Of a stretch of 64,000 nt of DNA, positions 6,521-29,486 are shown one piece after another. The stretch spans positions 3,744,458 to 3,808,457 of the forward strand of contig NC_031476.1 of assembly GCF_000006565.2 (NCBI RefSeq). Direction: 5' to 3'. A program made the position numbers and the translations under genes. The notes under the pieces are model-generated. The model saw only the letters and a program-made list of their open reading frames with translations. It was not told the origin of the DNA and ran no database searches. The DNA is from Toxoplasma gondii ME49. Taxonomy: Eukaryota; Apicomplexa; Conoidasida; Eucoccidiorida; Sarcocystidae. The first letter of the stretch is position 1; each line of letters begins with the position of its first letter.

Positions 6521-8020
6521 TGTTCTCGGGGAAGAACTCGAGTACAGAGAGAAAAAAGCCTGCGTGGGCGACGAGAGCAGAGAAGGCAGGCCGAAGAAGA
6601 GAGAAGGGCAGAGATCGGAGAGAGGAGAACAGAGAGAGAAGAACAGAGAGAGAAGAACAGAGAGAGAAGCGCAGAGAGAAGAGGAGAAGAAGAACAACGG
6701 AGAAAAGAAAGAGGAGGGAAGAAAAGGAAGAAACAGATGCAGACAGAGCGGGCCAGGAGCGGTCTTGGCGTTGCGGTGGAAGTCCAACAAAGAAGAGAGA
6801 CCCCAGAGAGTTTTAGAGAGAGAAATGCCTCAGAAAAAAAAGAGAGGAGAGAAAGGCGTCGCAGCTGACAGGGGTGTGCAGATGAGACAGGCCAGAACAG
6901 CACCAGCTGAGCAGTGAAGGAGAGGGCGGGGAGAGAAAGAAAAAGTCCTTCCAAGAAGGAGATTCTGAAGGATGCAGAAAGCGAATTGCCCTGCAAAAAA
7001 AGTCTGTCGAGAGACGCTGGAGTTCCAGCACAAGAGTTCACTCGAGTGATTTACGACAGCCGCAGCGAGAAAAGAAGAACGCGTAACACTCAGCCGCGCC
7101 CAGCTCGTGAGGAAGAAAAGAAGAAAGAGAAGAAGAAAGAGAAGAAGAGGAGAAGAAGAAGAGAACAAGAAAGAGAAACAGGAAGAGAGAAAGGAAGAGA
7201 GAAAGGAAGAGGGAATGCCGATAAATAGAGGACAGAGAAAGCCTAGAGTCCAAGACTTCCCCAGAGAGAGTCGAGGGAGAGAAGACAGAAAAACGTTTAG
7301 GTCTTCGTATACGAGCAAAGAAGGTTCTAGAAGAAAGAGACAGCGCAGAGAAAGCGAAACGCCTCTCCTCTCTGTTCACTCCCAGTGGGGTGTGAGCATA
7401 AAAGCCATCCCCACGGTATACATTCAGGATACCTTTCATGTTTCTTTTCTCACGACTTGTTCCTTTTTTTTCGTTTTTCAATTTCGAAAGCAAGCTTTTT
7501 TGTTGTTTTTCTCTCCCTTGAGAGTTGAGGGGCTCTAGTCCTTCCCTCTTTCTGGGGGGGGGCGAGGCGTCGAGCGACGAAGCGCTGTCTCTCCTCCGCT
7601 CGCGGCTGCGGGGAGAGGAGAAGGAACTCAAAGAGAACTGAAAGAGTCCGAGAACTGTATTTTTTGCCGCAGATGTCAAAAGGCGTTTGACTGCCTTTTC
7701 GTGACGACCATCTGGCAAGCCTTGAGTCTCTGTTTTTTTCCGTTAAAACTCGCTGAGGAGGAACTCGAAGCTCCTCGAATTTCTTCCGCACCTTGTCAAC
7801 CGCGCTCTCCCGTCCCTACCGGCGGTGATGTTCGTTTCTCCTTGCTGGCGGATCTTTGTTTGCTTCTTTCCGTCCAAAAACGCTTCTCGCGTCTTCTTCT
7901 CGTCCTTGGAACGCCAGCAGAGAAGCAGGAGAGTCGCGTGGAAACAGGCGCGGACAGAGAGAGCGACCGAGCAGAAAATGGATTTCCTGTTGTGAAGGAG
8001 TCTCTGTCCTCTTCTCCCCG
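6521..8020. other. Divergent 5' flank between CID and RNA Pol III genes
   Basis: The 1.5 kb between two divergently transcribed genes must hold both promoters and 5' UTRs. Positions 6560-7250 are almost entirely purine on the + strand (AGAGAGAAGAACAGAG-type repeats). From about 7440 to 8020 the + strand becomes pyrimidine-rich approaching the polymerase start. I see no TATA box or other element I can name. Open frames across the purine tract are compositional. Confidence 0.5.
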
Positions 8021-24137: not shown

Positions 24138-27100
24138 ATGCCTCCAGGGTTTCAGCCGACGAGAGGCGCCGCTTCCCGCAGCGCTTGGGGTGCAACTCCC
24201 TCCCCTTTTGCCGAACCTGAAGAGCACGAGGAGAGAAAAGGCGATACTTCTTCTGATTTTTCACAACAGAAAATGTCTCAGATTTCTTCGAGAATCGCTG
24301 CTTCAACCGACCCCCCGAACGCGGGACTCTCGACGATCGCGGGAAACCCAGCTTCAAGTGTACAGACAGTACCTTTCGACGGCGAGGAAGCCCCACATCC
24401 ACAGAGCCATGCCTTTCTCCAAAACACCTCTGCCTCTGCTTCTTCCTCGTTTTCTTCCTCCGCTTCTTCGTCTTCTTCGTCTTCTTCTTCCTCCGATTCT
24501 TCGTCTTCTTCGTCTTCTTCATCTGACGTTTTGCCTGTGGCTGTTGCTTCTTCTCCCCGGCGAGGCTCTGTTCTTCTTTCTCGCTTTGGAACGCCCAGCA
24601 GCGGACGCCTTCTTCCAGGTGTGCGGCTTCTCTCCTACGACCCCACAGTCGAAGGCTGCGTCGAGGCTTTTCTTGCCGAGTGCTGTGACGCGAGTCGACA
24701 AACCAATCCAGTGTCTAGACATCCCGAATCATATCAGTCCTCTTCTTCCTCGTCCTCCCCTTCTCTCTCTCCTTCGTTGTCTTCTCCCTCCTCGTCTTCC
24801 GCCTCCTCATCTTCCGCCTCCTCATCTTCGTCCTCTTCTTCTTCGCCCTCTTCTTCTTCGTCCTCTTCTTCTGTTGACCCTCCTTCGCGTCCAGCGCCGC
24901 GCGGCTTCGGGGAGGAGACGCGGCAGGAGTTGGTGGTGTCGGTGAGCGTGGGGAGTCTGGTGGGGAAGCTCTCGGGATGGAAGGTGAATCTGCCGGTGGC
25001 GCTGGAGACGATGCTGGAAGAACAAGTGGATCTCGATGTGATGTTTCAGCCGTGGGAAGCGAATGGCCAGTCTCGCGCGGGGGTGGCAGGCGACGAAGGA
25101 CGCGCGGCGCCAGAGGGAGAGAGAAAGCTGTCTTTGCAGAGACTGCTCCAGCGCCTCCTGCAGGCGAAGCGCAAGGCTTATGCGCTCCGACCTTCACGGA
25201 GACACTACCAAATCGTAGACACGTTGAAAGGAGACTCGGGAGGAGACAAGTCCGATCCGCAGCAAAGGCGGCGGCCGCAGCAGCAGGGGCGGAGCGACGA
25301 AGAAGCTGAGGAGGGACTCGGTGCAGGCCGCGTCCTCAGATACCGTCTCGTGTCAGAGGCCGATTTGGAAGAGCCGGACGAGGACATGGTCCCACAGGGT
25401 GCTCGCGAAGAGAAAGTAGGAGACCGAATTGTCGGGGAGACGGACGGAAACACCGCAGCAACACAACCAGCAAAGGAGACAGGAAACAAGGGAGATCGCG
25501 AGGTGCAACCTGCAGAGAAGAAGGAAGAGCGGGGCGAGTTGATAAGCGAGGCGAGTGCTGTTCAGCGAGACAGTGGAGCTCAGGAGAAGGAGAGCGTGAA
25601 CGCTCTGGGCGCTCGAACGGAGGCGGCGAAGCTCAGAGAAGAACACACCACTGCGAAGAGAAACAAGCGAGGACGGCAGCCGACCCGCGTGGAAGTCGTG
25701 GAGCGAATTCCTCTCGGCGCGCGTCTGATTTATCGACCTCGAAGCGACAATCACATTCGCCTTTCAGCCGAGTCGGAGATCGCGACGCTGTACACTCCTC
25801 GGTTGGAGAGGAGTCTCTCGAAAGTCCCAAAACTCGAGACGCAGATCGCGACCTCAAGCGAGACTGACGGTGCCTCTGGGCCGCGGTCAGAGGCGTCCGC
25901 CGGGGGAGAGGAGAACACCGAACACAGTTCAGGCGAGACAGCCTGCTTGCGAGAGGAAGTGATTCAGAGGGCGTGGGTGACGCAAGACGTCTGGGAGCTA
26001 CCTCCCGTGGACTGGTCGCGACAGGAGAGCCCCCACCGGCCTCGATGGAGACTGGTAGTCACGGAGGAAGGTGAAGTCGCAGACTGTCGGACTCCAGCGC
26101 CGACGCTGCTGCTTGCGGGGGGCGCATGGCGCGGCCGAGGAGGAAAGCCTTCGCGAGCTCTCGGCCAGCTGCCTGGGGGGCTCGGGAGGAAGGCCCCGGG
26201 TGTGAACGCCGCTGAAGACGCGAAACAAGACCGCGACGCAGAGGAACACATTGCAGACGACGTGGACCGCTATGAGGAGACCAAAAAGGTGTACGTACAC
26301 CTGGAGATATGCGGCGGGGCGCTGCAGAGACAGCTCGAACGCAGACAGCGCGGGCAGAGAAACGCGTTTGGAGCACTGGCGCTTCTGATCTTTGAAAATG
26401 CACAAGTTCTGGCAAAGTGGATCGACGAAATCAATGGAGACTTTGGAGGCTCCGGGGGGCCGTTCTACTTCCCGAACCACATGGGCGATGTCGTACACGC
26501 TGTACAGAAACACTACAATCAAAGAAGGCTCGTCAGTGCAGGACGATCCCGAATCGGAGGACTTCGTATTCATAACAACCAAGTAAGCGAAGTTACAAAC
26601 TCTTCACACAGACGTATACGAATACTTATGTACACGCATGTATACGTCTGTCATGACATCTACTGTTGTATGCATATGGATGTATATGGACATATATATA
26701 TATATATATATATTGCAACATACGCATTAACGTTATGCTTGCATGTGCAGTTAAGCGGGCTGTGGAAGGTAGAGTTCACAGGAGGTTTAACCTCTTTTTC
26801 AGAATTGATTTCTCTGTGTCCGCCTTGGAGGGTCCTCTGTGGGTCCGTTTTTATCTCCCCGTGCGTGTCTGCCGCTTCGTCTCCGCGCAGTGCTGTCTCG
26901 CGTGGTGTCTGCTGGAAGGAAGGCAGTGACGTCGGGGAGTCGCTGTAGTCCTCTATTTGACATGTACGTAGTCAGCGACAGTGGGGCTTTGTTTCAGACG
27001 GTGTTCCGACATGAACGTCTTCCATGTCCGTGTGTCGATTTCTCACTTGACCGTTTTCGGACGTCTTTCAGCAGTTTTTTTCGTGGGGTGTTTCTTTCAC

Positions 27101-28259
27101 CATGACCCAAGGACCACGAGCGGAATGGGGAACGTTCGTGGTCGGTTGGAAGTTCTCAGCGCCGCCTAGTCTTCGCCAGGTGTCTTTTATGAAGGCTTCG
27201 TTGCTTCTCTTCCTCCCATTCGAGCCTCTCTTTTGCTTTGCACCGACCGCACCGTTTCGATCCAGGTGAAGCGCCTGCTGATCAACAAGTACGTCTCGAT
27301 GGGCCAGACAGTCTTGGAGCTCGCATGCGGTCACGGACAGGACATGTGGAAGTACGCAGACCGCTGCATTGGGAAGTTCGTCGGCGTGGATGTGTCTGTT
27401 GCGGAAATTCGAGAGGCCCGGCGTCGTGTGCGTGAGGGACAAGCGGCGAGACATCTTCTCCAGCAAATGCTTCACCCGCCTGCGTTCCACGTGGGGAACT
27501 TGGTCGACCGACGAGCTCTCAGTTTCCTGCGCTCCGAGCAGTTCGACGTCGTCTCCATTCAGCTGGCGATACATTATATGGTCCAGACCGAGCAGCAGGC
27601 GAGAGAGGTACTCGGCCGAGCAGCGGCCCACTTGAAAGAGGGTGGCATGGTTCTCGGAAGCACCGTCTGCTGCGGCGCCCTCGCAGACCATCTCATTGAA
27701 CTCGCGTTCGTCTCGGAAGCCGAGGAGCCTCCCGAGACGCTCGGCGCAGACGCGGGACAAGGTGCAGGCGAAGGAGAGAAGGCGATCGAGAAGTGCGACT
27801 TCGGCAACGAGGTCTACAGCGTCACCTTCGACCTCGACACCGTCGACAAACTTCTCCAAGGCGCCCCTGGAATCGACCAAAACTGGATGGCCGCCAGGAA
27901 AGAAAAAATCAAAGCCGCAGGTACGAGCGCGAGGCCTCCACGTGGAGCGCTCCTCGGGCTGCAAAGGTCCACCTCAAATGACGTCTCTCCCCGAGTTAAA
28001 CGAACGAAGGAGAGAGTCCATGTATCTGCACACGCAATAAGATTTGCTGAAAAGCGGTAAATACCTATTTTTCTATTTGAACAAATACATATGCAAATAT
28101 ATATATATATATATATACATGTGTATGTATATTGGTATATGGATCTGTCAATATCTAGGTATCTATGTACAAATAAACATATACAAATGGATGAGTGCCT
28201 GCCTGTTAAATCCCCCTTTTGGGGTCGTTGTCTTTCGTCGATACATATATATTTGTATA

Positions 28260-28290
<31 letters not shown>

Positions 28291-29252
28291 TCATGTAGAT
28301 AGATAGACAGACGTAGTGGGATATGTGTGCGTGTAGAATTAGATACGCATATATATGTATATGTTTATATATATATATATATTTACTGAAGTTTAAGCGC
28401 ATATCTCTGCGTTCTAGAAGTTGTGCCCGTGTACATTTACATCTTGGGGGGTGGAGGGGTCAGGTTGTGTTTTCGTATGTTCCTTTTGCGTGTTTGTCAG
28501 CTGGTTCGGATCCGTCTGCGTGGAAGCAGTACTTGTTTGCGGATCTTCCAGTGGAGGCGCGCGCAGCCGTGGGCGAGCATCTGAGGAAACGGTTGGAGAC
28601 AGAGTTTGGGGTCGAGTATCACTTTTTTCTGTCGGACGCAATCGACGCGAAGGAGTTCGTCCTTCCCTGGAGGAGTTTTTGTGCAGTGGCCGCCTCACTG
28701 GGTCTGAAGCTCATGCTGAGCATGACGTTTCCGGAGTTTCTCGCCGCAGCTGCAGCCGATCCGGTCTCTGAGCGGGGGCTCAAGCGTTGGCTGGAGCGCT
28801 TGAACGCGACGAGTCGCCTAGACAAGCCACAGTTCGAGGCGTTCTCTCTGTACAAAGTTTTCGTGTTCAAGAAAGCGACTGCGAGTGCAGAGAAAGCTGG
28901 TGCAGCGCTCCACAGGGCGTCGCAAGGCTCCACCGCCTCTGCGCCAAGCTCGCAGCTGTCGCCACTCGGTGTGCCCTCCTCCACAGAGCCGCAGGTCTCC
29001 CAGCCCAGTGCGGACCTGGACGCGCAGCTCTCGGGAGACGTGCAGAGCGAAAAACGTCTGGGAAGCGGGCGCCAGGCAGAGCAGGCTGGGGTGTACGTAC
29101 ACCCGAGTGCTCAGCTAGCTGGCCCGGCGCGGGGCGGGGAACAAGTGACGCTGGATGGCAGCTTCCCCGCAGACAGAAACGCGTTGTTGGCTGGAGTGCC
29201 GCTGAAGAGAAAGAAAACCAAACGCGCGCAAAACCTGAACGAAGACCTGTGA
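24138..29252 (+). CDS. mRNA cap guanine-N7 methyltransferase with N-terminal Cet1-like triphosphate-tunnel domain, three exons
   Basis: Exons are 24138-26582, 27266-27920 and 28501-29252. The joins CCAA|GTAAGC..CAG|GTGAAG (phase 0) and GCAG|GTACGA..TCAG|CTGGT (phase 1) give 1283 residues. The C-terminal third is the SAM-dependent enzyme that N7-methylates the GpppN cap: cap-site entry HYNQRR...SRIGGLRIHNNQ (about 792-815), SAM motif I VLELACGHGQD (about 831), FDVVSIQLAIHY (about 908), GNEVYSVTF (about 995) and YHFFLSDAIDAKEF...PW (about 1073). The usual length is 350-480. The N-terminus has two polyserine tracts (24433-24527, 24737-24871). Then residues about 260-760 follow, in order, the strands of a Cet1-type RNA triphosphatase: VSVSVG...VNLPV, HYQIVDTL, RVEVVERIPLG...HIRLSAESEI, RPRWRLV and VYVHLEI. 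The metal-binding ExE acids of the first strand are not seen (V/S instead), and only one remains in the last. The methyltransferase call is firm; the triphosphatase-like call is from pattern reading. Confidence 0.9.
24433..24871 (+). repeat. Two polyserine-coding TCT/TCC tracts
   Basis: Tracts at 24433-24527 and 24737-24871 are runs of TCT, TCC and TCG codons giving almost pure Ser. They flank a short ordered segment (VLLSRFGTPSSG...YDPTVEGCVEAFLAECCD) upstream of the tunnel-like domain of the cap enzyme. Confidence 0.9.
26287..26302. repeat. GGTGT-N4-ACACC element, exact, 16-bp perfect palindrome, coding
   Basis: AGGTGTACGTACACCT. It lies in exon 1 of the cap enzyme, read as KVYVHL, exactly on the strand that would carry the second ExE motif of a Cet1-type triphosphatase. 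Confidence 0.9.
26691..26713. repeat. (TA)n tract in cap enzyme intron 1
   Basis: ACATATATATATATATATATAT run in the 26583-27265 intron. Confidence 0.9.
28097..28383. repeat. Three (TA)n tracts in cap enzyme intron 2
   Basis: Runs at about 28097-28118, 28263-28292 and 28366-28383, with ATGTATATTGG / CATATATATGTATATG spacers, all inside the 27921-28500 intron. Confidence 0.9.
29089..29104. repeat. GGTGT-N4-ACACC element, exact, 16-bp perfect palindrome, coding
   Basis: GGGTGTACGTACACCC in exon 3 of the cap enzyme, in its Ser/Gly-rich tail, read as GVYVHP. Confidence 0.9.

Positions 29253-29451: not shown

Positions 29452-29455
<4 letters not shown>

Positions 29456-29486
<31 letters not shown>

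What the first reader, a model, noticed from the sequence alone, without database searches (positions are those of the whole stretch)
24138..29252. Cet1-like triphosphatase domain fused to the mRNA cap N7-methyltransferase
Upstream of an unmistakable N7-methyltransferase, residues about 260-760 reproduce the order of conserved segments of a Cet1-family RNA triphosphatase: first strand plus VNLPV, then HYQIVDTL, an R/E pair in HIRLSAESEI, RPRWRLV, and VYVHLEI. In yeasts and Plasmodium the metal-dependent triphosphatase is, as far as I know, a separate protein. A triphosphatase-methyltransferase polypeptide lacking the guanylyltransferase would be an unusual layout for the capping pathway. The match is by eye, so it needs a profile or structure test.
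Basis: partly seen in the sequence, partly recalled or inferred. Interest (0 to 1): 0.78.

Follow-up and report, generated by a model that had tools for sequence, protein, structure and literature searches.

The report
Dead triphosphatase domain fused to cap methyltransferase
The enzyme that finishes the mRNA cap in this parasite carries, at its front end, a tunnel-shaped domain that descends from the enzyme for the first capping step but has lost the residues needed for that reaction, so it probably acts as a helper module.

Summary

The interpretation needs changing: this is probably not the working triphosphatase. The motif-A metal glutamates align with Val and Ser here. The second is absent in 20 of 20 aligned sequences, this one included; the motif-C one in 21 of 21. 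A separate gene in the same genome keeps these motifs. Most likely this is a pseudo-triphosphatase that docks, or binds RNA ends, for the methyltransferase. The closest precedent is trypanosome RESC1/RESC2. Nine literature searches showed no earlier description. Plasmodium could not be tested.

The parts
24138..26582 (+). Exon 1 (815 aa): variable N-tail, TTM domain, first segment of the methyltransferase
24573..24698 (+). Residues 146-187, 71-95% identical to 3 coccidian relatives; the second half aligns with the TTM N-terminal helix of Cryptosporidium
24699..24920 (+). Ser-rich insert between that helix and strand 1 (4-18% identity)
24918..26432 (+). TTM (Cet1-like) tunnel domain, strand 1 to last helix, with variable inserts
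24930..24953 (+). Motif A strand LVVSVSVG; positions of Cet1 E305/E307 are V266/S268
25728..25775 (+). Strand IYRPRSDNHIRLSAES; H539 stands where the Pct1 strand has Asp (FDIRIS); R541 at the Cet1 K409 position (register by my count)
26286..26309 (+). Motif C strand KVYVHLEI; H721 at the Cet1 E496 position in the profile alignment (E723 if the register shifts by two)
26463..26582 (+). Start of the cap methyltransferase (FYFPNHMGD...HYN...LRIHNNQ)
26583..27265 (+). Intron 1 (GTAAGC...CAG)
27266..27920 (+). Exon 2: methyltransferase core (LELACGHGQD)
   Evidence: PF03291 hit
27921..28500 (+). Intron 2 (GTACGA...CAG)
28501..29252 (+). Exon 3: C-terminal half of the methyltransferase and tail
   Evidence: PF03291 hit

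Best explanation
One gene encodes a cap guanine-N7 methyltransferase with a Cet1-type TTM domain at its N-terminus. The domain has kept the tunnel fold but lost the metal-binding glutamates, so it is a pseudo-triphosphatase. Shown here by sequence and prediction: one polypeptide, the fold, the loss of motif residues, the separate triphosphatase gene with its motifs, and conservation across distant apicomplexans. Inferred: the domain is a non-catalytic module that serves the methyltransferase in cis, either by holding the 5' end of the nascent transcript in the remodelled tunnel or by docking the methyltransferase onto the true triphosphatase or RNA polymerase II. RESC1/RESC2 are the precedent for RNA-end binding by a dead tunnel, and Cet1-type proteins commonly pair with each other (recalled). 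Fold plus loss of catalysis: about 0.85. RNA-end binding as the main role: about 0.35. Docking: about 0.35.
Against: No experiment. The window's own exon 1 gives no Pfam or PDB sequence hit by itself, so membership rests on relatives and on a model of middling confidence (mean pLDDT 60.7, pTM 0.58). 8 of 17 whole proteins scanned show no PF02940 match. The family profile does not score the genome's own triphosphatase ORF above noise. The motif-C register is uncertain by two residues. The basic residues of strands 8-9 could not be assigned: two alignments disagree. Cryptosporidium keeps the first motif-A Glu (E in 9 of 20 sequences). The TTM-methyltransferase packing is not resolved.
Confidence: 0.65

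Rival explanations
1. The fused domain is an active RNA triphosphatase, giving a bifunctional first-and-third-step capping enzyme.
For: Cet1/Pct1 fold; R541 and the SAESE stretch retained; E723 could serve as a metal ligand if the motif-C register shifts by two; Cryptosporidium relatives keep the first motif-A Glu.
Against: Motif-A glutamates are V266 and S268 in the window; the E307 position is E/D in 0 of 20 and the E496 position in 0 of 21. [quoted passage not shown] A triphosphatase gene with these motifs exists elsewhere in the genome.
Confidence: 0.05
2. The domain is a docking partner: it forms a mixed pair with the true triphosphatase and so ties the third capping step to the first. 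(One branch of the best explanation.)
Against: No interaction data; no complex was predicted here.
Confidence: 0.35
3. The domain is an RNA 5'-end clamp: the remodelled tunnel with its invariant His holds ppp-, pp- or Gppp-RNA and feeds it to the methyltransferase. (The other branch of the best explanation.)
For: RESC2 binds 5'-triphosphate RNA in a tunnel lacking two metal glutamates. His is conserved in 20 of 20 and R/K at the K409 position in 8 of 20.
Against: The K409 and R393 positions vary across the family. After guanylylation the cap has no free triphosphate, so the ligand is unclear.
Confidence: 0.35
4. The fusion is a gene-model artefact: two neighbouring genes joined by prediction.
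For: No transcript data for the window were available.
Against: Exon 1 encodes the first methyltransferase segment in frame with the TTM domain; ten Cryptosporidium-type proteins and one transcriptome ORF have both parts in one chain.
Confidence: 0.02

Closest known systems
Cet1-like RNA triphosphatases (S. pombe Pct1, S. cerevisiae Cet1; PF02940)
   Same: Tunnel fold, C-terminal helix, LP and Y-P-RIS strand motifs in the same order
   Different: Metal glutamates lost, Asp to His in the Y-P-RIS strand, fused to the cap methyltransferase; Cet1/Pct1 are separate active enzymes
RESC1/RESC2 (GAP1/GAP2) of trypanosomes
   Different: Guide-RNA binding in RNA editing, not fused to a methyltransferase
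Trifunctional viral capping enzymes (mimivirus, vaccinia D1)
   Same: N-terminal TTM triphosphatase and C-terminal N7-methyltransferase in one chain
   Different: They have a guanylyltransferase between the two and an active tunnel (recalled); here there is no guanylyltransferase match
RNMT/Abd1/Ecm1 cap N7-methyltransferases (PF03291)
   Different: No TTM domain in these proteins (recalled; the solved chains are methyltransferase domains)

Membership tests
Cet1-like TTM RNA triphosphatase | Tunnel fold | tested here: met
Cet1-like TTM RNA triphosphatase | Profile match above curated cut-off (PF02940) | tested here: inconclusive
   Window exon 1: no match at E up to 10. C. hominis TTM piece 24.6 bits vs cut-off 24. 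Whole proteins: 9 of 17 scanned match at E below 0.1, none over the cut-off; 5 relatives not scanned
Cet1-like TTM RNA triphosphatase | Motif A ExE metal ligands | tested here: not met
   V266/S268 in the window; E307 position E/D in 0 of 20
Cet1-like TTM RNA triphosphatase | Motif C metal Glu (Cet1 E496) | tested here: not met
   H721; 0 of 21 E/D; a two-residue register shift would place a Glu (E723) there in 4 coccidian sequences only
Cet1-like TTM RNA triphosphatase | Basic gamma-phosphate ligands (R393, K409, K456, R458) | tested here: inconclusive
   K409 position R541 kept, R393 position Pro, the other two not alignable
Cet1-like TTM RNA triphosphatase | Metal-dependent triphosphatase activity | not testable with these tools
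   Needs purified protein
Cap guanine-N7 methyltransferase (PF03291) | Profile match over cut-off and RNMT/Abd1 fold | tested here: met
Trifunctional viral-type capping enzyme | Guanylyltransferase domain between TTM and methyltransferase | tested here: not met
   No PF01331 in exon 1 or in P0001-P0003 at E up to 10; a partial PF01331 match lies on contig C11
RESC1/RESC2-like dead TTM | At least two of three metal glutamates absent in a tunnel fold | tested here: met
RESC1/RESC2-like dead TTM | Binds 5'-triphosphate RNA | not testable with these tools
   Needs binding assay

The most novel reading that the evidence does not exclude
Apicomplexans as a group use a capping methyltransferase with a built-in dead triphosphatase tunnel, whose invariant His-containing site reads the state of the transcript's 5' end (or grips the true triphosphatase), making cap methylation conditional on the first capping step. 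As far as I know neither animals nor fungi have such a device.
Probability: 0.35. Interest if true: 0.78.

Novelty: new variant of a known kind. Interest (0 to 1): 0.62.

Why it matters
The layout of the capping enzymes has been considered a marker of eukaryote phylogeny (PMC2904801, passages). A triphosphatase-derived domain joined to the methyltransferase without the guanylyltransferase adds a layout that I know from no other group. It would give the TTM superfamily a second pseudoenzyme branch in RNA handling, beside RESC1/RESC2. The domain sits on a pathway expected to be essential and is absent from human RNMT (both recalled), so it may matter as a parasite-specific target.

Tried and rejected
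Single-sequence tests on the window's own exon 1 found nothing: PDB phmmer with max E 10 gave 0 hits, Pfam 0 families, NCBIfam 0. BLASTP of the domain against the genome's own triphosphatase ORF gave only weak matches outside the motifs, best E 0.030. The A6 profile does not find that ORF above noise (its one domain scores -2.3 bits, over motif A and the LP strand), nor the N-terminal piece of P0022 (4.6 bits against 3.8 for the best shuffle), although both match PF02940. The sequence link therefore runs through Pct1 and PF02940, not through the parasite's own enzyme. In one search the alignment program misplaced the C-terminal half of that ORF and motif A of P0022; I read the ORF's motif C by eye, where the Pfam match (residues 496-586, profile 150-221) supports it.

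A search for relatives in viral contigs gave 29 pattern matches, none confirmed. The window's TTM protein found only itself in the own genome (E up to 0.1, 10 candidates). PF03919 found nothing in the own genome or any control, so it says nothing. Plasmodium and Babesia are missing from the homologue lists. Only the 7993-7997 candidates sharing most words were scored, so this absence is not evidence. The many other methyltransferase matches only reflect the methyltransferase fold.

Literature: nine searches bore on the question; a tenth looked for transcriptome accession prefixes. No title or abstract start listed describes this fusion. Five papers were read by passages only. The library lacks most subscription journals and the Plasmodium triphosphatase paper. 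Considered and rejected: gene-model artefact, and an active enzyme (see rivals).
Full report
What is there. The window lies in a 65.3 Mb genome of 1959 contigs. ORF 24138..26948 (+) is open. Splicing 24138-26582, 27266-27920 and 28501-29252 gives one frame with GT-AG introns of 683 and 580 bp and a protein of 1283 aa. It aligns with Neospora P0001 over residues 1-1278, Besnoitia P0002 over 135-1276 and Cystoisospora P0003 over 107-1035. The junction NNQ|VKR agrees with those relatives, and Cryptosporidium proteins align straight across it. Exon 1 ends inside the methyltransferase, so it belongs to the same gene.

Methyltransferase half. PF03291 matches exons 2 and 3 at 80.1 and 47.3 bits and nothing else in the genome among 3 candidates scored. 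In P0001 the match starts at residue 723, in the part that exon 1 encodes here.

The N-terminal domain is a Cet1-type tunnel. The window's exon 1 alone has no Pfam or PDB sequence hit. Relatives give the link. A profile of ten TTM pieces (A6, the window's among them) finds one of 177,635 PDB sequences at E up to 10, S. pombe Pct1, E 5.2e-5 (best stretch 6e-4), with motif A, the LP strand, the Y-P-RIS strand and, weakly, motif C plus the last helix in order. A profile of 20 whole relatives finds Pct1 at E 6.2e-6 over its TTM half. PF02940 matches 6 of 10 TTM pieces at E up to 1, best 7.5e-6, and the C. hominis piece passes the curated cut-off. In whole-protein scans 9 of 17 proteins match PF02940 with E below 0.1 (P0003, P0006, P0008, P0010, P0013, P0014, P0015, P0017, P0019), none over the cut-off; the window, P0001, P0002, P0004, P0005, P0007, P0016 and P0020 do not match. 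P0009, P0011, P0012, P0018 and P0021 were not scanned, and P0022 is left out of this count as a different kind of protein. In a local control Pct1 scored 24.2 bits against 3.8 for the best of 300 shuffles and 3 reversals; in the same run the genome's own triphosphatase ORF and the P0022 piece did not rise above the controls by more than a bit.

Extent. The conserved block at residues 146-187 ends in a helix that aligns with the N-terminal TTM helix of Cryptosporidium. The domain therefore runs from about residue 168 to 765, with a Ser-rich insert (188-261) and further inserts. Strand blocks are 55-88% identical to three relatives and inserts 4-35%. This pattern fits a folded, constrained domain.

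The catalytic site is gone. By passages of PMC10201420, Cet1 E305, E307 and E496 bind the metal, R393, K409, K456 and R458 bind the gamma phosphate, and a single change in any metal ligand inactivates the enzyme. Which Pct1 residues these are I took from the motifs and my own counting. In the alignment the window has V266, S268 and H721 at the three metal positions. Counting the window with its relatives, the E305 position is Glu in 9 of 20 (all Cryptosporidium-type) and Asp in 1. The E307 position is E/D in 0 of 20. The E496 position is E/D in 0 of 21. An Asp of the Pct1 strand FDIRIS is His in 20 of 20. The K409 position is R or K in 8 of 20, including the window (R541); R393 is Pro here. 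The counted rows are A4's 22 minus those with a gap in the column; ten of them are close Cryptosporidium relatives, so these are not independent events. The motif-C register is uncertain by two residues because of a gap before the last helix; shifted, E723 would sit at E496 in the window and three coccidia but not elsewhere. The strand-8 basic residues were aligned differently by two methods and are left open.

The true enzymes are elsewhere. PF02940 matches one other locus of the genome, contig C12 (L001; 30.2 bits; 43.7 bits for the ORF). Its ORF reads LELEIEGRLG and, further on, DCRLAINLE, RRIKKRQSF and YEVETEL. By eye this is the catalytic set; the automatic alignment placed only motif A correctly. 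PF01331 (guanylyltransferase) matches contig C11 in part (35.3 bits, profile 159-194). A second copy of the fused domain was not found.

Spread. Proteins that align over both halves are P0001-P0003, Cyclospora P0004, Theileria orientalis P0005, P0006 and P0007, nine further Cryptosporidium-type proteins P0008-P0016, and unnamed P0017 and P0019. For P0004, P0005, P0007 and P0016 the TTM assignment rests on the alignment alone. P0018, P0020 and P0021 hold the methyltransferase and only part of the domain. P0006 is 86% identical to C. ubiquitum P0008, hence called Cryptosporidium-type. P0007 carries a transcriptome accession (GDKJ), so both parts seem to be on one transcript there; its organism was not resolved. 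GHVN (P0018) is Selenidium pygospionis by a table in PMC10304595 (passages). Plasmodium and Babesia did not appear, but the searches scored only 7993-7997 candidates.

How it probably works. A fold kept without its metal ligands, over the distance from Cryptosporidium to Toxoplasma, points to a non-catalytic job. RESC proteins GAP1/2 are called RNA triphosphatase pseudoenzymes (PMC12936278, passages), and RESC2 binds 5'-triphosphate RNA in its tunnel. By analogy the domain may hold the transcript's 5' end for the methyltransferase, or pair with the true triphosphatase to join the first and third steps. Both are inference, and I rank them about equal.

Novelty. Protozoan and fungal triphosphatases are described as TTM enzymes in a three-step pathway (PMC4791841, passages); viral chains join triphosphatase, guanylyltransferase and methyltransferase (domain order recalled). 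A TTM domain joined to the cap methyltransferase without the guanylyltransferase was not found in nine literature searches of open-licence papers. The public names shown for the proteins (for example mRNA capping enzyme large subunit family, Abd1p, cap methyltransferase) do not mention the domain, and the precomputed Pfam lists shown lack PF02940. I rate it a new variant of a known kind.

Noticed in passing
L001 (own genome contig C12, 2909463-2909738 -): Separate Cet1-like RNA triphosphatase gene with motif A (LELEIEGRLG) and motif C (YEVETEL) present and long inserts; probably the working capping triphosphatase.
   Followed up: partly
P0022 (1281 aa, record without organism name): A chain with PF02940, PF01331, PF03919 and PF03291 matches (PF01331 and PF03919 just under, PF02940 under, their cut-offs) followed by a ubiquitin C-terminal hydrolase (PF00443): apparently a triphosphatase-guanylyltransferase-methyltransferase joined to a deubiquitinase.
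   Followed up: no
window 24573-24698: Residues 146-187 are 95% identical to Neospora while the flanks are 18-29%; only the second half is explained by the TTM helix.
   Followed up: partly
P0003 residues about 885-959: The Cystoisospora model diverges at the exon 2/3 junction and loses the methyltransferase C-terminus, probably a missed last intron in that annotation.
   Followed up: no
window about 26693-26715, 28098-28118, 28265-28290, 29455-29484: (TA)n simple repeats in introns 1 and 2 and downstream of the gene.
   Followed up: no
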